Source: a virus
DNA length: 64,000 nt
Strand: one strand, 5' to 3'
Virus record (IMG/VR): IMGVR_UViG_3300032213_003144
Coordinates: 62,001-126,000 of that record
The stretch's first letter is position 1. Every line of letters begins with the position of its first letter. The notes beneath the pieces were generated by a model, which ran no database searches, was not told the origin of the DNA, and was given only the letters and a program-made list of their open reading frames with translations. Below, piece after piece: positions 676 to 26,539 of this stretch. The translations under genes were made by a program, and so were the position numbers.

Positions 676-1401
676 ATGGTTGCACTAAAAGACGTTGGAG
701 GTAAGGAACCAGGCGCACCAATAAATGTGACCGCCACAAATGGTGCTACTGGAAACGCTATTGTTTCTTTCACTCCAAATGGAACCGGAAAAGGAACCCC
801 CACATTTCAGGTTCTTTCAAGTGCTGGACACACAGCATCCGGCGCATCTAGCCCCATCACCGTTACCGGCCTAACTGGCGGAACAAGCTATACGTATCAG
901 GTTAGGTGTGTTTCTAACGGCATCACCGGTCCGTATTCATTGCCGTCGGGAAGTGTTACTTCTGGTTTGGCACCAGGCGCGCCAACTGGTGTTACTGCAA
1001 CGGCAGGCAACGCATTGGCAACAGTTGCATACACTGCTGGTGCCGCTGGAACAACTGCTTCAACATTTACAGCCACCTCAACACCGGGCAGCTTTACTGG
1101 GGTTGGCGCATCTCCGATAACGGTCAGCGGTTTGGCAAACGGAACCCCTTACACATTTACGGTTACCGCATCAAACAGTTTTGGCTCAGCAATATCGGCT
1201 GCATCAAACTCCGTAACTCCAGTAGCGCCCCCATACTTTCCTCCTTACTTCCCACCCTTTTTCCCACCGTTCTTCCCTCCGTTCTTTCCTCCATTCTTTC
1301 CACCGTTCTTCCCTCCATTCTTTCCGCCATTTTTCCCTCCATTCTTCCCTCCATTCTTCCCTCCTTTCTTCCCGCCAGGTTTTGGTCCAGGTTTCAAATA
1401 G
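676..1401 (+). CDS. Fibronectin type III protein with Pro/Phe tetrapeptide-repeat tail
   Basis: 241 residues. Two FN3 domains are seen at about residues 12-97 and 101-183, each with the repeated APxxVTAT opening and the GLxxGTxYTxxVxxxxxxG strand pattern. Residues 185-232 are twelve tandem tetrapeptides (two PPYF, ten PPFF), followed by PPGFGPGFK. FN3 domains decorate many phage virion proteins and bind carbohydrate or cell surfaces. The Pro repeat is unusual. The gene sits 3 nt after a tail fibre and 14 nt before a prolyl-4-hydroxylase-like gene, so it is a plausible substrate for Pro or Tyr modification (inference). The FN3 call is firm; the role is not. Confidence 0.8.
   Translation: MVALKDVGGKEPGAPINVTATNGATGNAIVSFTPNGTGKGTPTFQVLSSAGHTASGASSPITVTGLTGGTSYTYQVRCVSNGITGPYSLPSGSVTSGLAPGAPTGVTATAGNALATVAYTAGAAGTTASTFTATSTPGSFTGVGASPITVSGLANGTPYTFTVTASNSFGSAISAASNSVTPVAPPYFPPYFPPFFPPFFPPFFPPFFPPFFPPFFPPFFPPFFPPFFPPFFPPGFGPGFK
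1228..1371 (+). repeat. 12 x 12-nt repeat encoding PP(F/Y)F
   Basis: Twelve in-frame 12-nt units encode Pro-Pro-Tyr/Phe-Phe. Synonymous codons vary freely between units (cct, cca, ccg and ccc for Pro; ttt and ttc for Phe), so the protein pattern, rather than recent DNA slippage, appears to be maintained. A partial unit PPGF follows. Confidence 0.9.
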
Positions 1402-1415: not shown

Positions 1416-2039
1416 ATGAATTACCGAGAACTGGTTTTTGATTTAGAAAGCCTGCCGTCTGCCGACCCATCAAATATAGTCATCAAAGAAAATTTTATAA
1501 GCATAGAACACCTTGCAGAAATAATGGATTACTGTAAATCTGCAGAGTACTGGGAGTCAAGAAGTCCACTAGGTTCTGACAGTATTCATATGCCAGAATT
1601 CATTCGAAAGAATTCTCCAAAAGTGTTCTCAATCATGCAGCAATACGTGGATAACGTTCAGTATGAAGTTGAATATAAATTTGGTAGGAAACTTGAAAAA
1701 ACACAACCAGGAATACGAAAATGGTATCCAGGCGAGTATCAGGATTTGCATGCTGATGGAGAGACTTCTAGTGGGTGGCCTGGATATAACTACATCGTAG
1801 ATTACGGGTCAATAATTTATTTGAACGAAGAGTACGAAGGCGGAGAGCTATTTTTCCCAAAATATGACCTATGTATTAAACCAAATCCAGGAACTCTGGT
1901 TTTCTTCCCATCAACAAACATGTATGCTCACGGCGTTACGGAAATTATGGATGGGGTAAGGTACACATCCCCACATTTTTGGACACCAGTAAAGCACAGG
2001 CTATTAATGGAAATGGCTGTAATGGATGAGCAAAAATAA
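1416..2039 (+). CDS. 2OG-Fe(II) oxygenase, prolyl-4-hydroxylase-like
   Basis: 207 residues with the jelly-roll oxygenase signature. The iron triad is H112, D114 (LHADGE) and H172 (AHGV), and R182 (GVRYTSP) should bind 2-oxoglutarate. Between them lies the typical YLNEEYEGGELFFP strand and a KPNPGTLVFFPS turn. Such enzymes couple decarboxylation of 2OG to hydroxylation of a protein side chain or small molecule. It is the first gene after the Pro-rich FN3 protein (14 nt gap) and overlaps the next sulfotransferase by 14 nt, implying a translationally coupled modification cassette. The substrate cannot be read from sequence. Confidence 0.88.
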   Translation: MNYRELVFDLESLPSADPSNIVIKENFISIEHLAEIMDYCKSAEYWESRSPLGSDSIHMPEFIRKNSPKVFSIMQQYVDNVQYEVEYKFGRKLEKTQPGIRKWYPGEYQDLHADGETSSGWPGYNYIVDYGSIIYLNEEYEGGELFFPKYDLCIKPNPGTLVFFPSTNMYAHGVTEIMDGVRYTSPHFWTPVKHRLLMEMAVMDEQK

Positions 2040-4694: not shown

Positions 4695-5426
4695 ATGAGA
4701 AACATTGATGTCGAGTACATAGGTGACCCCAAAGCTGGGTTTTTGGTTTATAGAAACATACTTACCGAAGACCTTAGAATTCCAGAACGCCTAGAAGCAA
4801 CAATAGGCGACAGCACCACTCCTCCTTATTCGTGGATGCAGGCCCTTGTCGGTGATGGTCAAGTAATGAAGGATTACAGGGATTGCGTTGACTGCAAGAT
4901 GAGCCCGGCACATTTTCAAAACTGTCCAGAGCAATACTCAGAACTCATCAACATATACAACGACACTGTCGTTGGATTGACTGCTTGCTTGCAAGATTAC
5001 GAATCCAGGTACAACATACGTATGGACTTCATGGAAGCAATCAACTACGTCCGATACAACGAGGGTCAGCACTTCAATGTTCACGCCGACCACGGTTTTT
5101 CATACGTCTGCACCGTGTCTTCGGTCATGTATCTTAACGATGATTACGACGGCGGCGAGCTTTGGTTTCCGTACTTAGATGTTACGTTTAAGCCTAAATA
5201 CGGAGACATAGTTTTATTTCCGTCAACATTCATCTATTCTCATGCATCCAAACCTGTCACCAGGGGAACCAAGTATGCAGCTGTAACCATGTTTGACTAC
5301 AACGACAGGTTCCATAAACAGTGGAAGGGCTACGGCAAGAACATAGACGGAACCGACGCTGAATACGGACCCGGAATCGTTAGCCCAACGGCAAACCAAG
5401 TCGAAAGATTTGTATTCAAAAAATGA
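4695..5426 (+). CDS. 2OG-Fe(II) oxygenase with Lys as likely 2OG ligand
   Basis: 243 residues. The triad is H130, D132 (NVHADHG) and H183 (YSHAS). The usual Arg eight to ten residues further on is Lys (K193 in RGTKYAAV), as in animal and plant prolyl-4-hydroxylases. The N-terminal half has extra Cys residues (DCVDCK, 63-68). Its closest relative in the window is the minus-strand gene 20607-21272, which shares the (I/T)KY...VTMFDYN tail and the long helical N-terminus. It overlaps the next gene by 4 nt (ATGA). Confidence 0.86.
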   Translation: MRNIDVEYIGDPKAGFLVYRNILTEDLRIPERLEATIGDSTTPPYSWMQALVGDGQVMKDYRDCVDCKMSPAHFQNCPEQYSELINIYNDTVVGLTACLQDYESRYNIRMDFMEAINYVRYNEGQHFNVHADHGFSYVCTVSSVMYLNDDYDGGELWFPYLDVTFKPKYGDIVLFPSTFIYSHASKPVTRGTKYAAVTMFDYNDRFHKQWKGYGKNIDGTDAEYGPGIVSPTANQVERFVFKK

Positions 5427-9161: not shown

Positions 9162-9216
9162 ATCCAAATCCTAGCATGGTAGCAAAGCGCAAAAATATTA
9201 AAAACAACCCCTGTGC

Positions 9217-9222
9217 TATGAT
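9217..9222 (+). promoter_or_regulatory. Candidate extended -10 promoter element
   Basis: TATGAT preceded by TGC (extended -10 form TGn) lies 7 nt upstream of the small membrane-protein ATG at 9229, in the divergent gap after the Cfa-like gene. No convincing -35 hexamer is seen. If used, the transcript would be nearly leaderless. Confidence 0.3.
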
Positions 9223-9228
9223 TTTTGT

Positions 9229-9369: not shown

Positions 9370-9379
9370 GGACGGCAGA

Positions 9380-10944: not shown

Positions 10945-10945
10945 T

Positions 10946-12397: not shown

Positions 12398-12406
12398 TAT
12401 CAATAT

Positions 12407-14879: not shown

Positions 14880-15417
14880 ACAATCTTTTAAAGGTTGTTC
14901 GATTGAGTGCCTTCGCCGAATCAGCACAAATGTGAACCTTCCATATCCCATCAGAAAATAGGGATTCTACAAGTTTTATTGATTCTTGCTTGCCCGACAA
15001 ATATAAGTCACGCTTATCCTCACCGCCCCCTTGGTCGTACCCGGTAGGAAATCCTCGAAACAGTGCTTCAACAAAATCTATATTTGCGGAACCTGCCATT
15101 TCTCTTACTTCTTGTTCCGACTCTTCACCGTGAAGATTGTTTCCGTCGACATATATGCCCTTGAAACCATGTTTTGCTGTTGCGGTAATTGTTTCAATCC
15201 CAATATTTAATCTTCCTATACAAAATAGAATGTCTGAAGCATCCAGCAGCTCAGGAAGTGAGTCATGTCGTACTGCGCCGGTAAGTGTTTTAGCGTTATC
15301 CAGTGTCTGTTGAGAACGACCAATAGGAGTCCAGTGGACTTCGTTTCCGGAATTAGTGACACTCTTTGAGATTGTTAGGCCCATTTTCCCCATAGACACA
15401 ATTCCAACCTTAAGCAC
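14872..15417 (-). CDS. Short NAD(P)-binding dehydrogenase-like protein
   Basis: 181 residues. The N-terminus VGIVSMGKMGLTISKSV is the GxxxMGxMG Rossmann loop of the 3-hydroxyisobutyrate/6-phosphogluconate dehydrogenase family; the middle has the ASDILFCIGR strand and YVDGNNLHG, and FVEALFRGFP corresponds to the end of the NAD domain. Family members are near 290 residues with a C-terminal helical dimer/substrate domain, which is absent here. So it is either a minimal NAD-binding protein or a truncated relic. It is convergent with 14151-14879 and lies 2 nt after the next minus-strand oxygenase. Confidence 0.6.
   Translation of the reverse strand: MLKVGIVSMGKMGLTISKSVTNSGNEVHWTPIGRSQQTLDNAKTLTGAVRHDSLPELLDASDILFCIGRLNIGIETITATAKHGFKGIYVDGNNLHGEESEQEVREMAGSANIDFVEALFRGFPTGYDQGGGEDKRDLYLSGKQESIKLVESLFSDGIWKVHICADSAKALNRTTFKRLFS
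14878..14900. repeat. Near-perfect inverted repeat at a convergent gene junction
   Basis: A 23-nt palindrome (GAACAATCTTT followed by T and AAAGGTTGTTC, one G-T pair) begins within the stop of 14151-14879 and lies inside the last codons of the convergent minus-strand gene. It could act as a bidirectional transcript-end hairpin, but neither strand has a U-tract after it. Confidence 0.35.
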
Positions 15418-15419
15418 GA

Positions 15420-16409
15420 CTATTGGGCTTTCTGGTTTGCCGGATTTATGTATCCTTGTTCGCCCTCTAGGTTTCTGACGAGGTAATCAACATTGTTGGA
15501 ATTCTCGTCCAGGTGAGAAAAGTTTGTCCTCAGATGGGAGCAATAAGCTTGATAGTCATCAAACACTGAATCAATCCAATGTGGAGCACACCAGTTTGAA
15601 ACCTCTCCTGGCTCAACAACTTCTATTCTGACATTTGCATCAGGGCTACCCTGAGAAAAAAACTCCAAATACGAATAACGAGTTCCGCCAGTAACCGTAT
15701 TTACGCCATGTGAGGCAACATAATTTGTGGGGAAGATTATTATGTCTCCCCGTTTGGCTTGATGAGATATACCCAGGTATGGGAAAAATAATTCACCGCC
15801 TGAATAGTTTGTTCCATCTAGCTCTTCCACCGAACCAACGCAATCGTTAATATAAAGAAGTACTGCAACCGTCTGTCTTGCGCCAAGCTGACCATAGGGG
15901 ATGTATCGCTGACCGCCAGTGGCCCTGTAGTTCGTATCATTATCGTTGTGAAGGCCGAGATACTTCCCGGTGTCGTAACGGAGAATGTGTCCTCGGTTTC
16001 TCCACCAGATTGTTCCTGCGACAAGGGGGAACATGTCGATATATCTAATTAGGGATTTATAAATAGAATCTTCCCAGTTTCTTACAATGTCCACAACCTC
16101 TTGCTCTGTGTTGTCTTGAATTGGTTGAAGCACTCTTACCGGTACGGCCTCCACCTGTTCCAGGGAGAACTTGTTCCCGTCCTCATTTTTTAAGTACACC
16201 ACTCCGTTTATGTCTGTGTCGTACTTCCATCTCTGCTGATGCGCAGCAAGGGCATTTTTATCAATCCATTTGGACATAAACTCCAAGTTGGTTTCCATGA
16301 CATTGTGAAAAACAACCACCCCACCACCAAGGTTGGTAAAGTCCAATTTCCTGATTTCCTCCAGAACCTCTGGCGTCATTTCTGGTGTATCAACCTCATA
16401 CCTCTTCAA
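15420..16409 (-). CDS. 2OG-Fe(II) oxygenase, LGGGVVVF subfamily
   Basis: 329 residues. It has about 25 extra residues before NLGGGVVVFHNV. IWWRNRGHILRY precedes H154/D156 (GLHNDND); YSGGELFFPYLG, KRGDIIIFP, H234 (ASHGV) and R244 (TRYSYLEFFSQG) follow. Its closest relative is the next gene, 16396-17394, with which it overlaps by 14 nt; together they are a tandem pair on the strand opposite the 12407-14879 trio. All catalytic residues are present; substrate unknown. Confidence 0.86.
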   Translation of the reverse strand: MKRYEVDTPEMTPEVLEEIRKLDFTNLGGGVVVFHNVMETNLEFMSKWIDKNALAAHQQRWKYDTDINGVVYLKNEDGNKFSLEQVEAVPVRVLQPIQDNTEQEVVDIVRNWEDSIYKSLIRYIDMFPLVAGTIWWRNRGHILRYDTGKYLGLHNDNDTNYRATGGQRYIPYGQLGARQTVAVLLYINDCVGSVEELDGTNYSGGELFFPYLGISHQAKRGDIIIFPTNYVASHGVNTVTGGTRYSYLEFFSQGSPDANVRIEVVEPGEVSNWCAPHWIDSVFDDYQAYCSHLRTNFSHLDENSNNVDYLVRNLEGEQGYINPANQKAQ

Positions 16410-17394
16410 TTGCGTTCACCCTTTCTGCGATGTGCGTTTCTCCATACTGAGTGACGCATCTATTTTGAAAAACAGGATTTGCTCCCAGCTCAAGGTCGGG
16501 GGTTGGGTGTGACCATATTGAGAATTCAGATTTGCAATAACGCTCATAGTCATCGTAGATACTGTCGAACCAAACAGGTTCGCACCATTGGATACTTTCG
16601 ACAGACTCCTTAATTCGGATATTTGCAGATTCATCAGTTCCGCCTTGACCAAAGAAAGTTAGATACGCATACCTAGTGCCACCCTCCATCTTGGTTACTC
16701 CATGAGCACATATATAATTGGTTGGAAACATGATGATGTCTCCCTTTTGCGGCTTATAATCAATCCCAAGATACGTGAACTTTAAGTGACCCCCGACGAA
16801 TGTCTCTTCAGTTAGGTCGTCTTTGGAGTCAACGCAATTATTGAAGTAGGCAAGTGCTCCGGCTGTTTGACGAAGTGCGACCTGGCCCCTAGGCATGTAT
16901 CGAACACCTTCGGTCACTTTGTAGTTGGTGTCATTGTCCTGATGCCAGCCAAGTATGCCTCCACCGTCATACCTGAGTATGTGTCCGCGTGTTCTCCACC
17001 ATAGGCTTCCGACGATAAGTGGGAACATGTCAATATATTTTATTAAACATTTATAAATGACGTTCTCGAGCTCTGTGAAGTATTGGGTGGCATATTCATC
17101 TGTCGACTCGATAACGGGCTCTAGCAGCCTCACAGGAGCGTTTGGGACGTCCTCCAGGCGATACCTGAAGCCATCTTCGTTGATGCCGTACTCAACTCCA
17201 TCCTCGCCAGTTATGTATGTCCATCTAACCTTATGTGCTTCGGCTGCACAGTCGTCAATATGCTCAAGGATTCTATCTTCTACCTTGAATACATTCTTGA
17301 AAACGACTATTCCGCTTCCGAGGTCCTCAAAGGCAAATTCTGATATTTCCTTAAGTTCGTTTTCCCCAATGATTGGGGTGCCGGGCATTATCAC
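16396..17394 (-). CDS. 2OG-Fe(II) oxygenase, LGGGVVVF subfamily
   Basis: 332 residues from a GTG at 17394; an ATG two codons on (17388) is an equal candidate. DLGSGIVVFKNV, then LWWRTRGHILRY before H151/D153 (GWHQDND), VGGHLKFTYLG, KGDIIMFP, H231 (CAHGV) and R241 (TRYAYLTFFGQG). Nearly colinear with 15420-16409, with a C-terminal tail (PVWFDSIYDDYERYC) also shared. The gene starts 2 nt after the stop of the glutathione-peroxidase-like gene. Confidence 0.86.
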   Translation of the reverse strand: MIMPGTPIIGENELKEISEFAFEDLGSGIVVFKNVFKVEDRILEHIDDCAAEAHKVRWTYITGEDGVEYGINEDGFRYRLEDVPNAPVRLLEPVIESTDEYATQYFTELENVIYKCLIKYIDMFPLIVGSLWWRTRGHILRYDGGGILGWHQDNDTNYKVTEGVRYMPRGQVALRQTAGALAYFNNCVDSKDDLTEETFVGGHLKFTYLGIDYKPQKGDIIMFPTNYICAHGVTKMEGGTRYAYLTFFGQGGTDESANIRIKESVESIQWCEPVWFDSIYDDYERYCKSEFSIWSHPTPDLELGANPVFQNRCVTQYGETHIAERVNAIEEV

Positions 17395-17396
17395 GG

Positions 17397-18020
17397 CTAA
17401 CCGACAAGAAACTTGACTGCATCAATCACGGTCCAAGACTGTCCTGCCGCAACCGGTTTTTCTGCAAGCGGTCTATCGGCCCAATTGAATCTTCCAACCT
17501 GTTGACCGTCTCGGCTTATGAGGAATTTTTCATTGTTATGTGGGATTCTCATTATTGCCTGTCCGGCGAGATTCTGTCCAGCGGCAGCACCTTCGGAGCC
17601 GTCGGCCTTGTTGTCGTCGAAAGAACGAACAGTATCCCCCTTCATGAAGCTCCAGGTTTTATGTTCGTCCGGACCGTTGACATCAATTTTTTCTGTTATA
17701 GGGAAGGTGACGAATGGGTATGCTTCTGAAACAAATTTTGCTATTTCCTCATTACCCATCGGGTCCATTTCGCTGAATTGATTACACGGAAAAGCTACAA
17801 CGCTGAAACCTTTGTCTTCAAACATTTCGTGAAGCATTTGCAATTCCCATAGTTGTCTTGCCGCTCTTGCGTAAGACCAAACAGGACTACACTTAGGCGT
17901 ATACCCAGCCTTGGTCGCAATGTTTGTAAATAGGCATACTTTCCCCCTCACTGAGTCAAGTAAATTTGGGGACCCGTCTATAGAGTTAATTGAAATATCA
18001 AAAATTGAACGATTGGTCAT
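17397..18020 (-). CDS. Glutathione peroxidase-like protein lacking the peroxidatic Cys
   Basis: 207 residues with the thioredoxin-fold GPx pattern: NIATKAGYTPK (33-43), AFPCNQF (76-82), ITEKIDVNG (108-116) and EKFLISRDGQQVGRF. In active GPx the Cys/Sec stands where A38 is found (codon gct). The tetrad Gln is M85 and the Trp is H161; only N162 remains. An insert of about ten residues with C44 follows the active-site loop. It is therefore probably a pseudo-peroxidase, or uses another Cys (C44 or C79). It overlaps the 99-residue gene upstream by 4 nt. Confidence 0.78.
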   Translation of the reverse strand: MTNRSIFDISINSIDGSPNLLDSVRGKVCLFTNIATKAGYTPKCSPVWSYARAARQLWELQMLHEMFEDKGFSVVAFPCNQFSEMDPMGNEEIAKFVSEAYPFVTFPITEKIDVNGPDEHKTWSFMKGDTVRSFDDNKADGSEGAAAGQNLAGQAIMRIPHNNEKFLISRDGQQVGRFNWADRPLAEKPVAAGQSWTVIDAVKFLVG

Positions 18021-18316
18021 ACTTTTACTCCGTTTATTTCGACGGTAACGTACTTATCAATCTCAACAAATCCTTTTAGTATTTTGCCGACCGATTGAAA
18101 CTTGCAGTGAAAATCAACGCTCATCGGGATATCGGTATGACCGCATAGGTCGACGTCAATCGTGTCGTCTGTCGTATTGATTATGGCTCCAGAGAATTGA
18201 ACTATACCCTTGTCGTGGGATATTGAGCCAGAGCCGTCATCGTTCAGACCGATGACATACGATTCTTTACCCAGTGGGGATAATGCGCTTACTGACCAAG
18301 TTCCCAAAGATTCCAT
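18017..18316 (-). CDS. Small beta-barrel-type hypothetical protein (99 aa)
   Basis: 99 residues, almost all predicted beta strand: starts with LGTWSVSALSPLGKES, then LNDDGSGSISHDKG, MSVDFHCKF, ILKGFVEIDKYVTVEI. The GTW start and the order resemble small lipocalin-like or enzyme-accessory beta-barrel proteins found in metabolic gene clusters; I cannot name the family with certainty. It lies between the PhyH-like gene (19 nt away) and the GPx-like gene (4-nt overlap), suggesting a joint role. Confidence 0.5.
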   Translation of the reverse strand: MESLGTWSVSALSPLGKESYVIGLNDDGSGSISHDKGIVQFSGAIINTTDDTIDVDLCGHTDIPMSVDFHCKFQSVGKILKGFVEIDKYVTVEINGVKV

Positions 18317-18335
18317 GAGGGTATGTTAGCACTGA

Positions 18336-19124
18336 CTATGGAGTCCTGAAGTATATTCCTTCGCCCCACTTGGCAAAAACATCAGAATGCTTTTCGACCA
18401 TTTCATCACGAATGGTACCTGACTGCTCGTAGAGCTCTCTGTCTTCAGGCTTGACATCTGGGTTTGAGAACATATTGCAATAATGCCCGATTAGGGATTT
18501 TCTTGTTAGTCCCCTATTGACCGGCATTGAACCTCTGTGAACAAGATGCCCGTGCCAAATTATGACATCACCCTTTTCGGCAATAAATGGGAACGTAGTT
18601 GCATTCCGTTTATCTATTTCTTTTTGGAAGAAATCATGAGATGATAATCCCTCTCTGATTCTTCCTGGCTTGCCAGGCTCCGTCAGGTACAAATCATCCA
18701 AACTGCAATTCCAGTTATGTGAACCAGGGACTATCTCGAACGGACCGGCTTCAGGGCTGACATCCTCAAGAGCAACCCAAGCGCCCTGATAATTGTCTCC
18801 AGCTTCTTTGAACGTAAAAGCTGCATCTTGATGCCAACCTTGTTCGGTTGACGTGAAGTACGTGACGTTCTTGTGAAGAGCTACCGCCTTGTTGACGTCA
18901 ACGAAAGTTCTTGCAATAGAGTCGTGGCAAAGAATGTCCATGATTTCTGGGTGGTCGAGGTATACGTCGAAGTCATTGCCCCATCCCTCTAGGTTTCCTC
19001 GTTCGTCCATTCGGTCTGCTACGTGCTTTAGCCAGAGCTGTTCGTATTTCTCGATGAGGTCGTCAGGGATTGCTTTTTTTAGTAATACGTAGCCATTTTC
19101 GTCGTAAAAGTCTTTAATGCTCAT
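18336..19124 (-). CDS. Phytanoyl-CoA dioxygenase (PhyH) family 2OG oxygenase
   Basis: 262 residues. Starts DFYDENGYVLLKKAIP, the standard PhyH opening; H98/D100 in QGWHQDAAF, then GAWVALEDVSPEAGPFEIVPGSH, the most typical PhyH block, and H196 (LVHRGS) with R208. PhyH enzymes hydroxylate lipids, small molecules or antibiotics with Fe(II)/2OG. Length is normal for the family. A different branch from the prolyl-hydroxylase-like genes around it. It precedes the 99-residue and GPx-like genes in the same minus-strand run. Confidence 0.9.
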   Translation of the reverse strand: MSIKDFYDENGYVLLKKAIPDDLIEKYEQLWLKHVADRMDERGNLEGWGNDFDVYLDHPEIMDILCHDSIARTFVDVNKAVALHKNVTYFTSTEQGWHQDAAFTFKEAGDNYQGAWVALEDVSPEAGPFEIVPGSHNWNCSLDDLYLTEPGKPGRIREGLSSHDFFQKEIDKRNATTFPFIAEKGDVIIWHGHLVHRGSMPVNRGLTRKSLIGHYCNMFSNPDVKPEDRELYEQSGTIRDEMVEKHSDVFAKWGEGIYFRTP

Positions 19125-19188
19125 GAACTAGACATTACACCATTTCTGCTAATAGTAAGACACACACTATAAAAATGCTGAAATCTAT

Positions 19189-19650
19189 TTACGTTTTAAC
19201 CCAAAAGAAGGAAGACGCATACCTATCTCCTGCGGTGATTTCTTTTACACCATGAAAAACCGGATTGCGCCAAAAAATAAGCGAACCCTCTTTCGGCTTA
19301 ATCTCTATCTTGTCATCAGGGAAGTATATTTCACCACCATCAAAACTATCAACCCAGTACAGTGTTGACGAAAAATCTGGTCTTTCTTCTCTCTTTGTGA
19401 AATCAATATGGACATCCTGTTTTTCCCCAATTGTGGAAATGTTGTAGTCCAACCCTGGATAGTCATATTCTTGGACTGTGATTGAAAATTCTGCTTCTAT
19501 TAAAGATTTTACCCTGTCCCTTATCGACTCGTAGTTGATTGTTGGTGGCAGGGACGGGAACCCATCTTTTGGGGTATTGGATATATGTTGAGCAAAAATC
19601 TCTAATTCAGAAGCTGTTAGTAAATCTTCAATATAATGAATTCTGCTCAT
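19189..19650 (-). CDS. 2OG-Fe(II) oxygenase, minimal (153 aa)
   Basis: 153 residues, the smallest oxygenase here and close to the bare jelly roll. Triad H81, D83 (DVHIDFT) and H133 (VFHGV), with R143 (GDRYASSFFW). WVDSFDGGEIYFP and KPKEGSLIFW are typical strands. It lies 18 nt downstream of the glycosyltransferase on the same strand, so a joint hydroxylation and glycosylation role is possible. Confidence 0.85.
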   Translation of the reverse strand: MSRIHYIEDLLTASELEIFAQHISNTPKDGFPSLPPTINYESIRDRVKSLIEAEFSITVQEYDYPGLDYNISTIGEKQDVHIDFTKREERPDFSSTLYWVDSFDGGEIYFPDDKIEIKPKEGSLIFWRNPVFHGVKEITAGDRYASSFFWVKT

Positions 19651-19668
19651 GTTTTCACAACGACCTTA

Positions 19669-20610
19669 TTAATCCAATGCATCCATTGCTTCGTAGAACT
19701 CCACTGGGTTGAAGCCGGCAAAATCTAGGTACTCTTTCAATTTTTCTGCATTTGGTGCTCCGCTATCGCCAAATAATTCACCCATATATATGCTTCGTTG
19801 GCGAGCTAAATCTTTTTGAAAACGTACTGAATAGCGGTTCATGTTTGAATGACCAATGTTGCCATGCCAATCATTTTCATAAAAAACCTCACCCTTGTTC
19901 ATGTGCCATAAAAATGGCTTTCCAATCGAGAACATTCTGTAACCACGAGTGTATGAGCGAAGTGCTACGAGGTGCTCATCACCAATAAATACAAACTTCC
20001 AGTCATGCCCAACCTCCTCCAACCATGATGATGAAGCAAACAAGACGTGGCCAGCAATCGTGTTGTGCTCAACCACATCTTCTCCGCACACAACTGAATC
20101 CCAAGACCTTTTTGGCTCTATCCAATTTTTTTCTGGAAAACCAAAAATGTAAGAACATACGTTGCAACAATTCTGTGAATCCGGTTTGTAGTGGAGTATT
20201 TCCCCATTTTCCCCTACTGACCACCATGGCACGAATGTTGAGATAATCGGTTTTTCGAACCCAGATTCAATTATTTTTTTATGTGCAGATATCAGACCGG
20301 AATCCCAATTTTTTTCAAAAAGCATGTGGGCGTCAATTTGTAAATAGTAATCCTCATTATTCCAAAATGAATCAGCTATCAATCTGTCAACACCAAAACC
20401 AGAAGGTTTACCAATTATTGAATATCTTACTTGAACGTTTTTAAGCATTGACAGGTCTTCGAAGCATCCGTCATTTGACTGATAATTTATTCCAAAAAAC
20501 ACTCGTTCTTGATGTTCGGCCATCTTTTGAGCTGACTCAATTGTTTGTTTTAAATATTGCTCATTATACGCAGGAATTGAAATAAAAATTGTCTTTTGAT
20601 TGTCGGTCAT
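19669..20610 (-). CDS. Glycosyltransferase resembling Skp1-type hydroxyproline GlcNAc-transferase (GT60-like)
   Basis: 313 residues. IFISIPAYNEQYLKQTIESA at the N-terminus, RVFFGINYQSN, then the block RLIADSFWNNEDYYLQIDAH (76-95) with LFEKNWDSGLI, which follows the GlcNAc-transferase family (PF11397/GT60) whose Dictyostelium member adds GlcNAc to hydroxyproline of Skp1. The D-A-H of QIDAH would hold the metal. It overlaps an upstream 2OG oxygenase by 4 nt and is followed by another, matching a hydroxylate-then-glycosylate order. Family recognised by eye only; a generic GT-A enzyme is the alternative. Confidence 0.72.
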   Translation of the reverse strand: MTDNQKTIFISIPAYNEQYLKQTIESAQKMAEHQERVFFGINYQSNDGCFEDLSMLKNVQVRYSIIGKPSGFGVDRLIADSFWNNEDYYLQIDAHMLFEKNWDSGLISAHKKIIESGFEKPIISTFVPWWSVGENGEILHYKPDSQNCCNVCSYIFGFPEKNWIEPKRSWDSVVCGEDVVEHNTIAGHVLFASSSWLEEVGHDWKFVFIGDEHLVALRSYTRGYRMFSIGKPFLWHMNKGEVFYENDWHGNIGHSNMNRYSVRFQKDLARQRSIYMGELFGDSGAPNAEKLKEYLDFAGFNPVEFYEAMDALD

Positions 20611-21272
20611 AAATCAAATTTTTCTATTGAAGAGTTTACAGATGCCCTGTATGTTGTCTTAAAGTACTCATGTCTATTGTAGTCAAACATAGTGACAACG
20701 GAATATTTGATACCATCTTCGACATTTAGGGCAGAGTGCATATACATAAAATTAGAAGGAAACACAATAATATCCCCAGCCTCAGGCTGAATGGTCACGT
20801 CAAGATTTTTGAAGTGCAGAGCACCCCCAGTAAAATCTGAATTTAAATACGCAACTGACGAAACAGATGCGACATAGCTAAAACCATCATCTGAATGATA
20901 ATTAAAGTAGTTATCATCATAATACTTTATGATATTCATAGTTTCCACGAAACCTAGGTCAACATTGAAATTCCTGGCATAATTTAATGCCGTATCGATT
21001 ATTTTGTTCCGCATCGAATTTACAATTCGAATATCATCTATGTCGTATTGTTTGTTTTTTAATGCAACTAGGTCTGGTTTCCAATCAAAACATTTCCTAT
21101 AAGTCGCACTTAATTGATAGTGTCCAACTTGCGCGGGGGACCATAGACACTCTTGGCCGTTTTGCCCACTAGCAATTCTCTCTATTGCGTCAACTACTGC
21201 TGGCGCATCATCTATTGCGTTTGGGAATCTCCAAATTCCAAAGCGTTCTTCACCACAGTATGCGTGGTCCAT
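20607..21272 (-). CDS. 2OG-Fe(II) oxygenase with Lys as likely 2OG ligand
   Basis: 221 residues. Triad H126, D128 (NYHSDDG) and H179 (YMHSA), with K189 (GIKYSVVTMFDYN) in place of Arg. This matches 4695-5426 on the other strand in the Lys and in the VTMFDYN end, so the two are paralogues. Lys is also the 2OG ligand of classical collagen-type prolyl-4-hydroxylases. It overlaps the GT60-like gene by 4 nt (coupled translation) and lies downstream of the Pro-rich FN3 protein. Confidence 0.86.
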   Translation of the reverse strand: MDHAYCGEERFGIWRFPNAIDDAPAVVDAIERIASGQNGQECLWSPAQVGHYQLSATYRKCFDWKPDLVALKNKQYDIDDIRIVNSMRNKIIDTALNYARNFNVDLGFVETMNIIKYYDDNYFNYHSDDGFSYVASVSSVAYLNSDFTGGALHFKNLDVTIQPEAGDIIVFPSNFMYMHSALNVEDGIKYSVVTMFDYNRHEYFKTTYRASVNSSIEKFDL

Positions 21273-21278
21273 TGATTG

Positions 21279-21506
21279 CTACCACTTGCCAAGCGGGCAT
21301 GCGGCTGCCTCCATCTTCACCTTGAGTTTCATGAAGCATCCACACTCTTTGCATTGTTTTGTTGTTTTGATTAAGCTCGGGCACTCCTCGCATATTTTGA
21401 ACCGATTTGCCGAAACATCTTCCGTCGCTTGAGGTGTGTTTGGGTTTAGTACATCCCACGGACGTGTTGTGCCTAGTTTCTTTTTATATTCTTGCCATGC
21501 ATTCAT
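21279..21506 (-). CDS. Small Cys4 zinc-ribbon-like protein
   Basis: 75 residues. After a helical start it has ICEECPSL, CKECGCFMKLK and ACPLGKW, that is, a CxxC and CxxCxC pair typical of a zinc ribbon, followed by a terminal Cys. Similar small CP...CGCFM...CPLGKW proteins are widespread in tailed phages without known function. The start ATG at 21506 is the only one covering the conserved part. Possibly a nucleic-acid-binding regulator. Confidence 0.65.
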   Translation of the reverse strand: MNAWQEYKKKLGTTRPWDVLNPNTPQATEDVSANRFKICEECPSLIKTTKQCKECGCFMKLKVKMEAAACPLGKW

Positions 21507-21523
21507 GCTGTAAATCCTTGCTC

Positions 21524-21754
21524 CTATACTGGTGGGTGAAAGCCTGTCTCATCATGAGTGTATCCCTCAATGACCATATCCTTTTGTTCCTCTAAAAGGA
21601 CTATTACCTTTGGGTCAGAAGATAGGGCTGCCACTTCGAGCGGCATATATTCGGTTCTCATTGGAATAATGCAGGCCACTTCGCCATCTACGACAAAAGC
21701 AAAGTAGGTGAAGTCTTCCTTGCGGAAAGTTGTTGGTGCTTCATTGTTTGACAT
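21524..21754 (-). CDS. Small hypothetical protein (76 aa)
   Basis: 76 residues, alpha/beta, with FTYFAFVVDGEVACIIPM and later LEEQKDMVIEGYTHDETG. Proteins with this look accompany tail genes in large phages, but no function is known to me. It sits between the FN3 gene and the zinc-ribbon gene on the minus strand, with an AGGAGAAA ribosome site 5 nt before the ATG. Confidence 0.6.
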   Translation of the reverse strand: MSNNEAPTTFRKEDFTYFAFVVDGEVACIIPMRTEYMPLEVAALSSDPKVIVLLEEQKDMVIEGYTHDETGFHPPV

Positions 21755-21775
21755 ATTTCTCCTTCTTTCTAAATG

Positions 21776-22795
21776 CTAACAGCCTGGGCCATCGCAATAT
21801 ACGTTTTGTGTAATGGTGCAGTTGGCGTTTCTTCTGTCTACCTGGAAGCAGTTTCCAGCACCTGGGTAGCATTTTCGACCGCTATTGTAGTACAGGACGG
21901 TACAGCCACTCGAAAATGAAGGTGGTGCGGTAAAGGTCGGTGGTGCGGTAAAGGTCGGTGGTGCGGCAAAGGTCGGTGGTGCAACCCAGCCACACTGTGC
22001 TTGGTACGGGTAGTTATTTATTCCAACTTCGCCACAACATCCGTCAGCAATAACATCTTGCAAGCTGTACGTAGGGCTTCCTGGTATGCAGTTCATGCCA
22101 ATAGGTGTTCCGTATGGGTCACATCCAGCGCAAGGGTCATTGAAGGTTGGAGGAGGAGCAGCAAATACCGGCGGTGAAACGTTTGTGGTCTCTTCAAGGT
22201 AAATTGAATCAGAGTTTGCCCAACCAGTCTTGGATACGTATACATATGTAAAGCGATTGACATTCTCACCAAGGCCAGTCCAACCGTGGCAACTTCCACT
22301 CTGGTCGTTTGGTACAACGTTGTAGCCGTAATAGTTGTAAGTATATGTAGCGTCGTGGTTGTCATAACAAAGCGGAATCGAGGAAGTTGTTTCTGCAATG
22401 TCGGAAACAATCGGTGTTGGGAGTTTTCCAAATAGCGGAGTTACCGAGTTTGAGTTGCTTGAAAAAGCCCCTGTGCCAATCGTATTTACTGCGGCGACCC
22501 TGAACACATAGGCTGTTCCGTTGGTCAAGCCAGTCACCGTAACTGAGGTTGAAGTTGAAACAGAGTCAGAGAATGTTGTAAAAGTGGAACCGCTGTCACT
22601 TGAATACTGGATTACATAATCGTTCAATGCCGGGCTCCCCAACATGACGGGGGCCGTCCAACTTACCGATGCAGTTGTGTTTCCATATGTTGCAGGAAGA
22701 CTTGCGGTCACCGATGTTGGTGCGCCTGGGACGAATCCCATGCGAAAACCAAACTTACTAGTTGAGCCGCTTCCAATACGGTTTAAGAATGGCAT
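21776..22795 (-). CDS. FN3 virion protein with Pro/Thr/Phe repeats and Cys-rich end
   Basis: 339 residues. One FN3 domain (about 25-120, APTSVTASLPATYG through GLTNGTAYVFRVAAVNTIG), then a linker, and a Cys-rich C-terminal half with about twelve Cys residues and the repeat PPTFAAPPTFTAPPTF. The Cys count suggests disulfide bonding on the virion surface. It lies 6 nt after the tail fibre gene, the same order as 1-1401 on the other strand. Role inferred: surface-exposed fibre-associated protein and possible target of the neighbouring oxygenases and glycosyltransferase. Confidence 0.75.
   Translation of the reverse strand: MPFLNRIGSGSTSKFGFRMGFVPGAPTSVTASLPATYGNTTASVSWTAPVMLGSPALNDYVIQYSSDSGSTFTTFSDSVSTSTSVTVTGLTNGTAYVFRVAAVNTIGTGAFSSNSNSVTPLFGKLPTPIVSDIAETTSSIPLCYDNHDATYTYNYYGYNVVPNDQSGSCHGWTGLGENVNRFTYVYVSKTGWANSDSIYLEETTNVSPPVFAAPPPTFNDPCAGCDPYGTPIGMNCIPGSPTYSLQDVIADGCCGEVGINNYPYQAQCGWVAPPTFAAPPTFTAPPTFTAPPSFSSGCTVLYYNSGRKCYPGAGNCFQVDRRNANCTITQNVYCDGPGC
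21921..21982. repeat. Tandem 18-nt repeats encoding the PPTF(A/T)A unit
   Basis: About three and a half head-to-tail 18-nt units (plus-strand core GGTCGGTGGTGCGGTAAA) lie within the FN3 gene. They are nearly identical at DNA level, unlike the 1228-1371 repeat, so they may have arisen by recent slippage. Confidence 0.85.
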
Positions 22796-22801: not shown

Positions 22802-23773
22802 TTACGCAAATTTCGTTTGACTCGCAAGAACAGTAAATGCAGCATTTCCTGTTTTGATTATCGCAAGTGTGTATGCATCAATTGAGCTAGCGTTCCCAGT
22901 TGCAGGGGCAGTTCCACCCATCCATTTTGGAGTTACGGCCGAACCGTCCACCTGAAACACTGTTGGTCTTCTTTGTGTTGTTCCTATCGTTGCAAGAAAA
23001 GTTACCGTCGCTATCTGACCTGTTGCAAGAGTGTTGTTCAGTGTGACGCTTGATGTTCCCCTTACATTAAGCGTCCAGTTTGCAGAAGCATCAACCGTGT
23101 AGTAAACCGTTGGATTTGTGCTGAAGTCAATGTTGATGGTACCCGTGGCAGCAGAAGCACTTATACTTGCAGTCTCAATAACGGTAGTCACATCAATTGC
23201 CGTAAGTATTGCCTTGCCAGCAGCATCTCTTGCGACAATTGCTGATGCAGTGTTTGCGTCAGTAGCGGTAGTTGCCGAGTTTAATACTTTCCCAGGAGTT
23301 GAAATTGTCCCAAGTTTTGTATCGGCTATTCCGGCGGAAGCAATCTTTGCCGAAGTTACAGAGCCATCAGCTATATCAGCAGCGATTATTGTTCCGTCCG
23401 CTATATGGGCTGCGGTTATTGCGTTGTCCGCAATTTTCGCACCAGTCACAGCGTCATCAGCAATTTTTATAGTTGTAACTTCACCATCCGCAAGTACGAA
23501 TGTTGGCGCTGAAACCCAACTTGAACCGTTAAAAAATGTAACGTCGTTATTTAAATCTATATACGCAAACATCCCCTCCTGCAGAAGGGGTTTCCCGTCT
23601 CCAACCACGCCGGCAACGGTTTGACCAATAGCAATACCATTACCAAACGCAGTATCCCTGGCTGCGGTGGTCGCGAATCTCATAATCGACTGATTCATTA
23701 AATAGCCGTTAACGTCCGCAGCAGTAATTACGTCTCCGGCAACAAAAAGTCTTGTTCCTAATCCACCAGCCAT
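22802..23773 (-). CDS. Tail fibre protein
   Basis: 323 residues from the ATG at 23773, chosen because AGGAG lies 7 nt upstream; a longer frame to 23836 overlaps the neighbour. Starts MAGGLGTRLFVAGDVITAADVNGYLMNQ, a common fibre attachment segment, then FATTAARDTAFGN, a repeat shaft of IADNAITAAHIADGTII type, and a beta-rich tip. The shaft is of the same style as the 1-672 protein on the opposite strand. It follows the baseplate gene set and precedes the FN3 gene, so it is the primary tail fibre of this module. Confidence 0.82.
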   Translation of the reverse strand: MAGGLGTRLFVAGDVITAADVNGYLMNQSIMRFATTAARDTAFGNGIAIGQTVAGVVGDGKPLLQEGMFAYIDLNNDVTFFNGSSWVSAPTFVLADGEVTTIKIADDAVTGAKIADNAITAAHIADGTIIAADIADGSVTSAKIASAGIADTKLGTISTPGKVLNSATTATDANTASAIVARDAAGKAILTAIDVTTVIETASISASAATGTINIDFSTNPTVYYTVDASANWTLNVRGTSSVTLNNTLATGQIATVTFLATIGTTQRRPTVFQVDGSAVTPKWMGGTAPATGNASSIDAYTLAIIKTGNAAFTVLASQTKFA

Positions 23774-23813
23774 TATTGGTCTCCTGTATTTCTGATTGTA
23801 AAGTTTATCATTG

Positions 23814-25088
23814 CTATCCCAGTGGGTATTCCCCAAGTACCCCGAGTGTCACGTCGTCAAGTGCTAATAAAAATGCCAGCACTGTCAAGTGTGTTATTTT
23901 GTAACCAAGAGGCCTTGATGGTTCAACTGCAGCAAGTACTATGTCGCTTGACTCGCCAACTTCTGCATCCAGGGTTTCGTTTACTATTGTTTGGATTCTT
24001 ATAGCCCATGGGTCGCCTCCGAATTTTGGGGTCAAAGAAACACTTCTGGTCGATGAAGAACCGTCTACTGTTTTTATAAGAACCTGCTTGGCTGATTCAA
24101 GTATCGCCCTTCTACTTCCAGCCCCTCTTCCGTGGTGAGAGCTACTCAGTTGCCACTCTAAAAAATCCCTAATCAAAGATTCGTTATCCAGGTAAAGTGA
24201 TTTATCTGGTAATTGAAAATTTTGTTTTAAAAATTCACCTGTAAATTGAGCCAGCCATGGCATGTACTCAGGCCTTACAGACTGTGGTGATACGAGTGAA
24301 CTTGATGCCCAGTATTCAGTTTTCAAGGACGGTGTATATATTTCATCATTCTCGTAGCCATACATTCTTTGATACTCACGTCGCGCGTCGCCGGCAAATG
24401 CAGTGAGAACGTCAATCAATCTGTAGAAGGGGTATGTTGGCGATGATTGGTCGGAGTCAATAGACCAGTAAAAATCAGGAAGATGATGCCTAAATTGACC
24501 AACAAATGGATTTTCGTAAAAACCAAGTTCCCTTATTAGATGCGCATTTGTCATTCTTATTTGCGTTGCTTCGTGTCCGGTTATTTCTACATCTATATTC
24601 GCATAATGGGTAGATGAATCGTTTGGAACGTAAGCAACATTTGACCAAACACCATTATATTGACCGCTTGATATTTCAGCAATGTTCTCTTCTACTGGAT
24701 AAAAAACCGAAGAAGAAGCCGACTGAGCTATGTTTGTTGATGGATTGACATAATAAACCGCTGAAGCTGAATCAATCCATAATTTTATTGCTACTGTAAC
24801 TTCATCAAGCGTTTTAATTTTTGAGTTAAAAACGAGACCAACACCATTTGTGTCAAGTGGGAGTTCTATGTTCCTTAATTTATATTTTACCGCCAGCGTG
24901 CTCGACGGGCTCGCAATGGCAACAAACCTAGACGTTACGTTTAAGTCTGTCTGAGATATTTCAAGCGTAGCGTTATCTGTTTCCCAGCCAAATGGATATG
25001 TCGTATTTGCGAGTGACACCAATCTGCCGTTTTCGTCATAGACGCTTAATGCGTCATGCCATGGGAGGAGGTTTACGGTTGTTGGCAT
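23814..25088 (-). CDS. Baseplate/tail protein of the P2 gpI type
   Basis: 424 residues. The C-terminal half has the P2 gpI-like pattern: MPWLAQFTGEFL, then FLEWQLSSSHHGRGAGSRRAI, which stands for the HR.KGT...AI block. The N-terminal half is a beta-rich extension that probably anchors the fibre. Its place right after the J-like gene (1-nt overlap) fits the J-I order of contractile baseplates. Function inferred: wedge tip joining the fibre to the baseplate. Confidence 0.65.
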   Translation of the reverse strand: MPTTVNLLPWHDALSVYDENGRLVSLANTTYPFGWETDNATLEISQTDLNVTSRFVAIASPSSTLAVKYKLRNIELPLDTNGVGLVFNSKIKTLDEVTVAIKLWIDSASAVYYVNPSTNIAQSASSSVFYPVEENIAEISSGQYNGVWSNVAYVPNDSSTHYANIDVEITGHEATQIRMTNAHLIRELGFYENPFVGQFRHHLPDFYWSIDSDQSSPTYPFYRLIDVLTAFAGDARREYQRMYGYENDEIYTPSLKTEYWASSSLVSPQSVRPEYMPWLAQFTGEFLKQNFQLPDKSLYLDNESLIRDFLEWQLSSSHHGRGAGSRRAILESAKQVLIKTVDGSSSTRSVSLTPKFGGDPWAIRIQTIVNETLDAEVGESSDIVLAAVEPSRPLGYKITHLTVLAFLLALDDVTLGVLGEYPLG

Positions 25089-26539
25089 TACGACTCAAAT
25101 ACGGTTATGGTCAAAGTTATGTCTTCTGCAGAAATAATCGGCAAAGTACCCTTATTCGCAAACAGCAAGTCTGTTCCGTACTTTGGTAGCCATCCACTAC
25201 CAACTGGGGATATTGAGACAGATTCTACATATATCACACCTGGTATGTTGGCAATTAGTGATACAAGTTGTGTTGTTCTTACCCTATCGAGATTGAAAGG
25301 GAAAACTCCAGGACTCAAGTAGTCTACGAGGGTATCAGTAATAGATGAACTAACAACAGATGTGTCGTATGATTCACTAATAACAACATCTGCTTCAATT
25401 GTTAAATTCACCAATGTTGGGTCTAGGACATTTACTGTTAGCCCGGCAACAGACGAGTCTGACACTTCTGTCTTGATTCCTAGTTTTTCTGTCTGTGTTA
25501 AGAACGTATTCAATCCATAACCAAAAACAGTTACATAACCTGGGTCGTCTTCTCCGGCATAGGCAGAGCCAGTTACTACAGTGCTGGCACTGTTTGAACC
25601 AACAGATGTGAATACTATTGTCGATGCGCTAGTTGCTAAAACTTCAAAATCACCAGAAAAAGGTCCGCAGTTAGAGAGCCTTACAGTATCTCCGGCTATA
25701 AATAAGTGTGGTGCCTGTGTTCGCACTGTACCGATATTCGTTGTTCCATCTCTAAATGTTTTAATTACACCAGCAGTCCTACTTACTGTTATGTCACCGG
25801 AAGTGCTGTCACCGTTTGTTAGGTCATATGAGCGAACTCGTCCAACAACACCAGGAAAAGTTGTAAGAATATACGAATCAAGTTGGCTTGATTTATTTAT
25901 GGTCGAAGACAATGAGCGCAAGTAAGTTGCAGAACGAGACAGATAATCTGAGTCTGTATCTGCGTTTACACCATTAACAAAATTGCTTGGGCTTGCAACA
26001 ATTGCACTAAAAATATTTGTACCAGCAGATATGACATTTAATTCCGCATTAGCTGATATTGGGGGTATTATTCCTAGCGTAAGGCAAGAACAGGTTATTG
26101 TTGCCGCTGGGTAGTCAGGGTCAACTTCTGGGTCAACTTCGGATATCTCTACCGCTTCGAGTGTTTGAAATGCATATTCCTGAAGCTCATCTTCAAAATA
26201 TGTTTCATAGCTAACAACTGTTCCAGCTGGAACAGTTCCGCCACTGTAGCTGTTTAGGGTGAATACGACATCTACCTGTGAGGCCACTCCTTCTTGTCGA
26301 TTAAATCCAAGGATTGCCATTACTCCAGACATCAGTCTGTTCGGTAATCTATTTATTGCTGAAATATTCAATGCGCTCACATATGCCATTGCCTGGAATA
26401 TTGCGTCTTCTGGGGTTCCTGTGCGAAGCTCAAATTGAGGAAGTGAAAGACGTGCAAGTTCAAGAGAATCCCTATAGATATCACCTGGCTCTAAGTCAAA
26501 AACACTTAGGTCTATATAGTTTGAAAAATCTGCAGGCAT
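25088..26539 (-). CDS. Baseplate J-like protein
   Basis: 483 residues. The opening SLELARLSLPQFELRTGTPEDAIFQAMAYVSALN and GFNRQEGVASQVDVVFTL with TVPAGTVVSYE are characteristic of the baseplate J family (P2 gpJ / T4 gp6 wedge). The domain NFVNGVNADTDSDYLSRSATYLRS with TFPGVVGRVRSYDL is the conserved core. It forms part of the baseplate wedge. It overlaps the I-like gene and lies 8 nt after the gp25-like gene. Confidence 0.88.
   Translation of the reverse strand: MPADFSNYIDLSVFDLEPGDIYRDSLELARLSLPQFELRTGTPEDAIFQAMAYVSALNISAINRLPNRLMSGVMAILGFNRQEGVASQVDVVFTLNSYSGGTVPAGTVVSYETYFEDELQEYAFQTLEAVEISEVDPEVDPDYPAATITCSCLTLGIIPPISANAELNVISAGTNIFSAIVASPSNFVNGVNADTDSDYLSRSATYLRSLSSTINKSSQLDSYILTTFPGVVGRVRSYDLTNGDSTSGDITVSRTAGVIKTFRDGTTNIGTVRTQAPHLFIAGDTVRLSNCGPFSGDFEVLATSASTIVFTSVGSNSASTVVTGSAYAGEDDPGYVTVFGYGLNTFLTQTEKLGIKTEVSDSSVAGLTVNVLDPTLVNLTIEADVVISESYDTSVVSSSITDTLVDYLSPGVFPFNLDRVRTTQLVSLIANIPGVIYVESVSISPVGSGWLPKYGTDLLFANKGTLPIISAEDITLTITVFES

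What the first reader, a model, noticed from the sequence alone, without database searches (positions are those of the whole stretch)
19669..22795. Possible hydroxyproline glycosylation pathway for tail proteins
Seen: a glycosyltransferase with the NNEDYYLQIDAH...NWDSGLI pattern, overlapping a 2OG oxygenase that uses Lys (GIKY) as in collagen-type prolyl-4-hydroxylases, and close to an FN3 virion protein with PPTF repeats. Known: the eukaryotic family with this pattern (GT60) puts GlcNAc on hydroxyproline of Skp1 after a prolyl hydroxylase acts. Inference: the phage hydroxylates Pro in its own fibre proteins and caps them with sugar, perhaps to change host range or resist proteases.
Basis: inference. 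Interest (0 to 1): 0.82.

Follow-up and report, generated by a model that had tools for sequence, protein, structure and literature searches.

The report
Phage tail-linker hydroxylation and O-glycosylation genes
This phage carries, right behind a tail-fibre gene, enzymes that look able to hydroxylate the prolines and add sugars to the threonines of the fibre's repetitive tail, a mucin-like or collagen-like decoration previously associated with eukaryotes; comparison of over a hundred related phages supports both steps but suggests that the sugar goes mainly on threonine rather than on hydroxyproline.

Summary
The glycosyltransferase (GT, 19669-20610) is a strong Pfam PF11397/GT60 match. Its gene overlaps that of a prolyl-hydroxylase-like 2OG oxygenase (20607-21272). 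Both lie downstream, on the same strand, of a tail-associated FN3 protein ending in APPTF repeats.

Comparative tests support a virion-decorating cassette in two separable parts:
(1) The Lys-type oxygenase clade tracks PPxF repeats. In an unbiased scan, 44 of 48 loci with at least 4 kb upstream carry PPxF repeats upstream on the same strand; 0 of 66 random viral loci do.
(2) GT60 tracks threonine. Thr-rich linkers lie upstream in 27 of 35 clade-II GT loci. Among PPxF tails, Thr occurs in 12 of 16 with GT60 and 0 of 62 without. Some long records carry GT60 plus poly-Thr but no PF13640 oxygenase.

By fold the GT is nearest polypeptide GalNAc-transferases and the oxygenase nearest protein prolyl hydroxylases.

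Best reading: prolyl hydroxylation plus mucin-type Thr/Ser O-glycosylation of the same fibre linker. There is no chemical evidence for either modification.

The parts
19669..20610 (-). GT60-type polypeptide HexNAc-transferase (predicted)
   Evidence: PF11397 E=4.3e-24; AF2 pLDDT 88, the 46 best PDB fold matches are polypeptide GalNAc-transferases; conserved D93, H95, W102, D103
20607..21272 (-). Lys-type prolyl-4-hydroxylase-like 2OG oxygenase (oxK), overlapping the GT by 4 bp
   Evidence: PF13640 E=2.7e-9; clade profile best in PDB = Bacillus anthracis P4H, 4.4e-7; fold nearest P. putida P4H and Dictyostelium PHD
19189..19650 (-). Short Arg-type 2OG oxygenase 22 bp downstream of the GT
   Evidence: PF13640 E=1.6e-9; profile of GT-adjacent relatives best in PDB = prolyl 3-hydroxylase 1, 1e-13
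21776..22795 (-). FN3, Cys-rich tail-associated protein; proposed substrate
   Evidence: fn3 E=4e-14; PHROG minor tail/tail fibre matches; linker varies with the enzymes in relatives
21896..21979 (-). APPTF x3 / APPSF linker, proposed hydroxylation and glycosylation site
   Evidence: translation
22106..22174 (-). SPPVFAAPPPTF linker, second proposed site
   Evidence: translation
21279..21506 (-). DUF6171 small Cys-rich protein, conserved between the fibre and enzyme genes
   Evidence: PF19668 1.2e-6; present in relatives
21524..21754 (-). small conserved ORF (FVVDGEV motif) between fibre and enzymes
22802..23836 (-). tail-fibre-like protein upstream in the same gene run
   Evidence: PHROG tail fibre 892 and phrog_5906
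676..1401 (+). second FN3 protein with (PPYF)2(PPFF)10 C-terminus; proposed substrate of the Lys-type clade
   Evidence: 77 related PPFF loci, 70 with a 2OG gene
4695..5426 (+). Lys-type 2OG oxygenase, paralogue of 20607-21272
   Evidence: H183+10=K; orthologue in 57 of 77 PPFF loci
1416..2039 (+). 2OG oxygenase directly after the PPFF protein
   Evidence: PF13640 4.9e-8; orthologue in 44 of 77 PPFF loci

Best explanation
A tail-fibre modification cassette. The FN3/APPTF fibre protein is made together with its modifying enzymes from one same-strand gene run (gene order shown; co-transcription inferred). The Lys-type 2OG oxygenase hydroxylates prolines of the PPxF repeats (inferred; strong genomic association). 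The GT60 enzyme transfers a HexNAc from a UDP-sugar onto hydroxyls of the same linker, mainly Thr/Ser as in protist mucins (inferred). Hydroxyproline is a possible extra acceptor where Thr is scarce. The result would be a stiff, polyproline-like, sugar-coated stalk between the FN3 part and the Cys-rich tip, which could protect the fibre or tune adhesion (function inferred).
For: GT: PF11397; fold nearest polypeptide GalNAc-transferases. Oxygenase: clade profile and fold nearest protein prolyl hydroxylases. 2OG with PPxF: Lys-clade scan of viral contigs, chosen without regard to linkers: PPxF x3 upstream in 44/48 loci with at least 4 kb upstream (36/39 non-redundant), all 59 cases in the full set same strand and upstream; random loci 0/66. 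Random viral loci with any 2OG: 1/66. GT60 with Thr: scan by GT alone: Thr linkers upstream in 27/35 clade-II loci, 0/35 downstream; random loci 4/66 with at least 9 T in 20 aa. Among PPxF tails, Thr at 0.25 or more per PP in 12/16 with GT60 and 0/62 without, P=4e-11. Within the window protein's own family, GT60-positive relatives (L106, L108, L112, L117) have Thr/Ser linkers such as (ATTAAP)n and TTTTTTAAPPPPTTT; GT60-negative ones have PPPPPPDP, PPNPPPP, PPEPPPP or PPSFPPDF.
Against: No modified residue, sugar donor or enzyme activity has been observed. Thr-free PPxF linkers with GT60 exist (L067, L102, L130; L127 has Ser only). The window's GT belongs to clade I, where poly-Thr linkers are rare (1/30) and 20/30 loci or so show neither linker type, some without an evident tail context, so other substrates are possible. 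Associations are not phylogenetically independent: for PPxF with 2OG-adjacency, independent pairs were too few for significance. L109 and L111 have two Thr before PPPPPP yet no GT60.
Confidence: 0.55

Rival explanations
1. One reading: the oxygenase makes 4-hydroxyproline in the APPTF repeats and GT60 caps that hydroxyproline with alpha-GlcNAc, as Gnt1 does on Skp1. The hydroxylase is required for glycosylation.
For: 4-bp gene overlap. 2OG gene within 60 bp of GT60 in 13/16 PPxF loci versus 2/23 Thr-only loci, holding in both GT clades when PPxF loci are compared with all others (P=0.013 and 1e-4). Some GT60 loci have PPxF linkers with no or almost no Thr/Ser (L067, L102). The Dictyostelium prolyl hydroxylase is the second-best fold match of the oxygenase. 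SAR86 bacteria keep a divergent gene pair of GT60 and a canonical P4H in 15 genomes.
Against: GT60 follows Thr, not PP: most PPxF phages with Lys-type 2OG lack GT60 near the locus, and those that have it mostly have Thr. GT60 occurs with poly-Thr and no PF13640 hydroxylase in records of 78-103 kb. GT-adjacent oxygenases in relatives are mostly Arg-type and not orthologous to the window's.
Confidence: 0.28
2. The enzymes act elsewhere: they belong to a tailoring island that modifies host lipid, surface polysaccharide or small molecules, and the neighbourhood with the fibre gene is incidental.
For: The same 20 kb holds a cyclopropane synthase, a fatty-acid desaturase, a PhyH protein, sulfotransferase-like genes and many Arg-type oxygenases. 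About two thirds of clade-I GT60 loci have no recognisable linker.
Against: Linker type covaries with enzyme content across many phages and always upstream on the same strand. Both folds are nearest to peptide-acting enzymes.
Confidence: 0.12
3. Only the hydroxylase step is real for this phage; the GT is a degenerate or different-specificity passenger.
For: The window's GT is only 22-43% identical to all but one of its homologues; PPxF plus 2OG without GT60 is the commoner arrangement.
Against: The GT keeps the family's invariant core residues, is confidently folded, and is 80% identical to an orthologue in the same position in another phage (L106/L119).
Confidence: 0.05

Closest known systems
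Protist polypeptide alpha-GlcNAc-transferases of CAZy GT60 (Trypanosoma cruzi, Dictyostelium mucin-type)
   Same: PF11397 family; acceptors are Thr/Ser-rich mucin-like domains, as beside most clade-II phage GT60 genes
   Different: Phage enzymes are single small domains encoded next to tail-fibre genes; donor sugar and linkage untested; the window's clade I goes with PPxF rather than poly-Thr linkers
Skp1 PhyA-Gnt1 hydroxyproline-GlcNAc pathway (Dictyostelium, Toxoplasma)
   Same: Prolyl hydroxylase plus GT60 acting on one protein; the Dictyostelium PHD is a top fold match for the oxygenase
   Different: Skp1 is modified at a single proline and regulates a ubiquitin ligase; here repeats of a virion protein; dependence of GT60 on the hydroxylase is not supported by the pattern across phages
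Viral, algal and bacterial collagen-type prolyl 4-hydroxylases (PBCV-1 vCPH, Chlamydomonas P4H-1, Bacillus anthracis P4H)
   Same: Closest solved sequences and folds for the Lys-type clade; Pro-rich repeat substrates
   Different: Targets inferred here are PPxF repeats at the end of phage tail proteins, in a clade well apart from the known enzymes (E about 4e-7 by profile)
Virion glycosylation of mycobacteriophages (Freeman et al. 2023, cited in PMC12619734)
   Same: Phage-encoded glycosyltransferases decorate C-termini of virion proteins
   Different: There the capsid and tail-tube subunits are decorated; no prolyl hydroxylases or fibre linkers are mentioned (known to me only from the citing text)
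Animal polypeptide GalNAc-transferases (GT27)
   Same: Best fold matches; initiate mucin-type O-glycosylation
   Different: The phage enzyme is a PF11397/GT60 protein, shorter (313 aa against about 440-540 aa for most matched chains)

Membership tests
GT60 / PF11397 GlcNAc transferases | Profile match above the curated cut-off | tested here: met
   86.1 bits versus cut-off 21
GT60 / PF11397 GlcNAc transferases | Conserved core motif (QxDxH...WD) | tested here: met
   D93, H95, W102, D103 invariant in 38 phage homologues
GT60 / PF11397 GlcNAc transferases | UDP-GlcNAc donor, alpha linkage to a peptide hydroxyl | not testable with these tools
   needs enzymology; the fold is nearest peptide-acting GT27
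Skp1-type hydroxyproline GlcNAc-transferase pathway | GT60 requires a partner prolyl hydroxylase | tested here: not met
   for the phage family as a whole: GT60 with poly-Thr linkers and no PF13640 in records of 78-103 kb; this does not exclude it for the window's own pair
Skp1-type hydroxyproline GlcNAc-transferase pathway | Acceptor is hydroxyproline | tested here: inconclusive
   covariation favours Thr, but Thr-free linkers with GT60 exist
Mucin-type polypeptide alpha-GlcNAc-transferase (T. cruzi type) | Thr/Ser-rich, Pro-containing acceptor domain nearby | tested here: met
   the window linker APPTF/APPSF contains Thr/Ser; Thr enriched in GT60-positive linkers. Whether it is the acceptor is untested
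Collagen-type prolyl 4-hydroxylase | HxD...H facial triad with Lys at H+10 | tested here: met
   H126, D128, H179, K189; invariant in the clade
Collagen-type prolyl 4-hydroxylase | Sequence and fold closest to known protein prolyl hydroxylases | tested here: met
   the large Arg-type island enzymes (A6) are instead nearest PiuC
Collagen-type prolyl 4-hydroxylase | Hydroxylates peptidyl proline | not testable with these tools
   no activity data; substrate inferred from PPxF association

The most novel reading that the evidence does not exclude
The window encodes a hydroxyproline-O-glycosylation pathway in a phage: a Lys-type prolyl hydroxylase supplies hydroxyls in Pro-rich fibre linkers and a GT60 enzyme caps them. 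Thr linkers would be the form that needs no hydroxylase. The same GT60-P4H pairing would also work in SAR86 bacteria. This would be a prokaryotic counterpart of Skp1- or extensin-type Hyp glycosylation.
Probability: 0.28. Interest if true: 0.9.

Novelty: new variant of a known kind. Interest (0 to 1): 0.76.

Why it matters
Many phage genomes carry 2OG oxygenases with no known substrate (PHROG 61 and relatives). This work gives one clade a concrete, testable substrate, the PPxF repeats of tail proteins, in 44 of 48 loci. It also gives phage GT60 enzymes one, the Thr-rich linkers of the gene just upstream. If true, aquatic phages build hydroxylated, mucin-like fibres. Both chemistries are best known from eukaryotes and would alter adhesion, protease resistance and recognition of virions. 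It would also make simple two-gene systems available for Pro hydroxylation and Thr O-glycosylation in bacteria.

Tried and rejected
GT2 alternative: rejected (below Pfam cut-off). Phage collection (mostly cultured phages): no match for the GT or the FN3 protein, so the system is known here only from uncultured phages. A single-sequence scan of viral contigs with the GT found nothing; an alignment query was needed. Solved structures by sequence for the GT: none.

The early idea that Lys at H+10 marks the GT-coupled hydroxylase was dropped: GT-adjacent oxygenases in relatives are mostly Arg-type. The idea that GT60 simply partners 2OG was weakened by loci with Thr linkers and no 2OG. A first count of PPxF in the Lys-clade scan (50/72) was an undercount: my gene caller missed reading frames overlaid by longer spurious ORFs. 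It was redone frame by frame with a stricter x3 repeat criterion (59/72; 44/48). The first-pass Thr criterion (9 T in 20) also hits FN3 domains; a stricter one was used by clade.

Literature searches on phage prolyl hydroxylase, hydroxyproline or tail O-glycosylation found no description of this system in the open-access library; one Baltic survey lists P4H as a viral gene whose use is cryptic.
Full report
What is there. The window is part (62001-126000) of a 170,425-bp uncultured virus record of a contractile-tailed phage: tail sheath, baseplate J, portal and terminase genes are present. On the minus strand the order is baseplate J (25088-26539), a tail-fibre-like protein (22802-23836), an FN3/Cys-rich protein ending in APPTF repeats (21776-22795), two small conserved ORFs (21524-21754; 21279-21506, DUF6171), a 2OG oxygenase (20607-21272), the glycosyltransferase (19669-20610, overlapping the oxygenase by 4 bp), and another short 2OG oxygenase (19189-19650).

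What the two enzymes are. The GT hits PF11397 at 4.3e-24, far above cut-off, while GT2 stays below cut-off. AlphaFold2 gives a confident model (pLDDT 88), and its 46 best PDB fold matches are polypeptide GalNAc-transferases, the enzymes that start mucin-type O-glycosylation in animals. The oxygenase has the HxD...H triad with Lys at H+10. A profile of its clade finds Bacillus anthracis prolyl 4-hydroxylase first (4.4e-7). Its model (pLDDT 89) is nearest a Pseudomonas prolyl 4-hydroxylase, the Dictyostelium prolyl hydroxylase, PHDs, PBCV-1 and Chlamydomonas P4H. PHD2 is over-represented in the PDB, so rank counts there mean little. The short Arg-type oxygenases that adjoin GT60 genes in relatives (A5) are nearest prolyl 3-hydroxylase 1 (1e-13). 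The large Arg-type island oxygenases tested (A6) are nearest PiuC instead.

A second pair in the same window. An FN3 protein at 676-1401 ends in (PPYF)2(PPFF)10 and is followed by a run of 2OG genes, including 4695-5426, a Lys-type paralogue of the finding's oxygenase. In 77 related loci with PPFF tails, 70 have a 2OG gene in the fetched stretch and 57 have an orthologue of 4695-5426. Those loci were found partly with PPFF patterns, so PPFF is selected there; the 2OG genes were not.

Test 1: does the Lys-type oxygenase go with PPxF? I scanned viral contigs with the Lys-clade alignment only. Of 48 loci with at least 4 kb upstream, 44 have three or more PPxF repeats (36 of 39 after removing near-duplicates). 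In the full set of 72 loci, all 59 cases with repeats lie upstream on the same strand. In 66 random viral loci none does. Three of the four misses have shorter or interrupted versions (PPYFPPSF, PPYFPPNF, PPFFPFFPPFF) and the fourth has NPGF/EPAF repeats.

Test 2: what does GT60 go with? I scanned viral contigs with the GT alignment only (80 loci kept, 67 non-redundant after adding loci found earlier). A tree gives two well-supported clades. In clade II, Thr-rich linkers (poly-T, PTPA, ATTAAP) lie upstream in 27 of 35 loci and downstream in none. In clade I, the window's, Thr-rich linkers occur in 1 of 30 and PPxF in 9 of 30. Random loci: at least nine T in 20 aa in 4 of 66. A 2OG gene lies within 60 bp of the GT in 13 of 16 PPxF loci, 2 of 23 Thr-only loci and 5 of 26 with neither. 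Several long GT60 records with Thr linkers contain no PF13640 gene (78, 92 and 103 kb; in the 92-kb one the Thr linker is on the opposite strand about 4.8 kb away). So GT60 does not need the hydroxylase, and the hydroxylase goes with PPxF.

Test 3: Thr or Hyp? Among PPxF tails, Thr at 0.25 or more per PP occurs in 12 of 16 with a GT60 gene and in 0 of 62 from the Lys-clade scan without one (1 of 113 when the PPFF-selected set is added). Within the family of the window's own FN3 protein, relatives with GT60 carry Thr/Ser linkers: APPSFTAP, TPPPTT, (ATTAAP)n, TTTTTTAAPPPPTTT. Those without GT60 carry PPPPPPDP, PPNPPPP, PPEPPPP, PPPPPPPP or PPSFPPDF. This favours Thr/Ser as acceptor. Four GT60 loci have PPxF linkers without appreciable Thr (L067, L102, L130; L127 with Ser only). 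There Hyp, Ser or another protein must be the target.

Independent hint for Hyp. In a scan of bacterial genomes, 15 SAR86 or related gammaproteobacterial genomes keep GT60 as a divergent neighbour of a canonical prolyl 4-hydroxylase (1.9e-32 to Bacillus P4H for the one compared). The target is unknown. This is one lineage with conserved synteny, so it counts once.

Relation to the literature. GT60 comprises Gnt1 (Skp1 hydroxyproline) and protist mucin-type enzymes acting on Ser/Thr-rich proteins (PMC6939170, PMC8724618). Virion glycosylation by phage enzymes is known in mycobacteriophages (cited in PMC12619734). Phold reports many phage proteins folded like prolyl hydroxylase EGLN3; the passages found assign no substrate (PMC12774648). 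I found no description of phage fibre prolyl hydroxylation or of phage GT60 with mucin-like linkers in the searchable library; most subscription papers are not in it.

Limits. My 2OG, GT and FN3 detectors outside Pfam/PHROG calls are home-made profiles. Contigs are fragments, so absence is local unless a whole record was searched, and even records may be incomplete. P-values ignore relatedness; with phylogenetic pairing the PPxF/2OG-adjacency link had too few independent contrasts. No chemistry is shown. Shown: gene content, order, homology, fold similarity, association of repeats with enzymes. Inferred: the reactions, the acceptors, the sugar, the function in the virion.

Verdict.

Noticed in passing
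676-1401 with 1416-6124: FN3 protein ending in (PPYF)2(PPFF)10 followed by a run of 2OG genes; the best-supported hydroxylase/substrate set in the window, repeated in many viral contigs.
   Followed up: yes
1416-21272: About 15 2OG-type oxygenase genes in 20 kb, including an Asp/Asn hydroxylase-like (9380-10090) and a PhyH protein (18336-19124); targets of most are unknown.
   Followed up: partly
L344-L373 (SAR86 and related bacterial genomes): GT60 gene divergently paired with a canonical prolyl 4-hydroxylase in 15 genomes; a possible cellular Hyp-glycosylation system.
   Followed up: partly
L098, L099, L100, L103, L108, L112, L117: A radical SAM/SPASM-like protein (Pfam-confirmed in L099 and L112) lies in the same gene run, next to or near the GT60 gene, in relatives; not seen at this place in the window.
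   Followed up: partly
2026-2781 and 2771-3511: Two proteins with a HIPKTSGT/HIPRTSGF motif, weakly sulfotransferase-like (PHROG 3347 for the first); possible fibre or host glycan sulfation.
   Followed up: no
5423-6124: DUF6065 protein, with relatives in 50 of 77 PPFF loci; a frequent companion of the Lys-type oxygenase with unknown role.
   Followed up: no
8037-9167 and 10087-10944: Cyclopropane-fatty-acid synthase-like and fatty-acid desaturase genes in the same island.
   Followed up: no
17397-18020: Glutathione-peroxidase-like gene; relatives sit within the oxygenase island of other phages too.
   Followed up: no
L266, L296, L311, L314 (Lys-clade loci): In several phages the PPxF tail follows a small domain that does not look like FN3, so the repeat may travel between different carrier domains.
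   Followed up: no
52047-63131: A single 3694-aa open reading frame on the plus strand after the portal gene, not examined.
   Followed up: no
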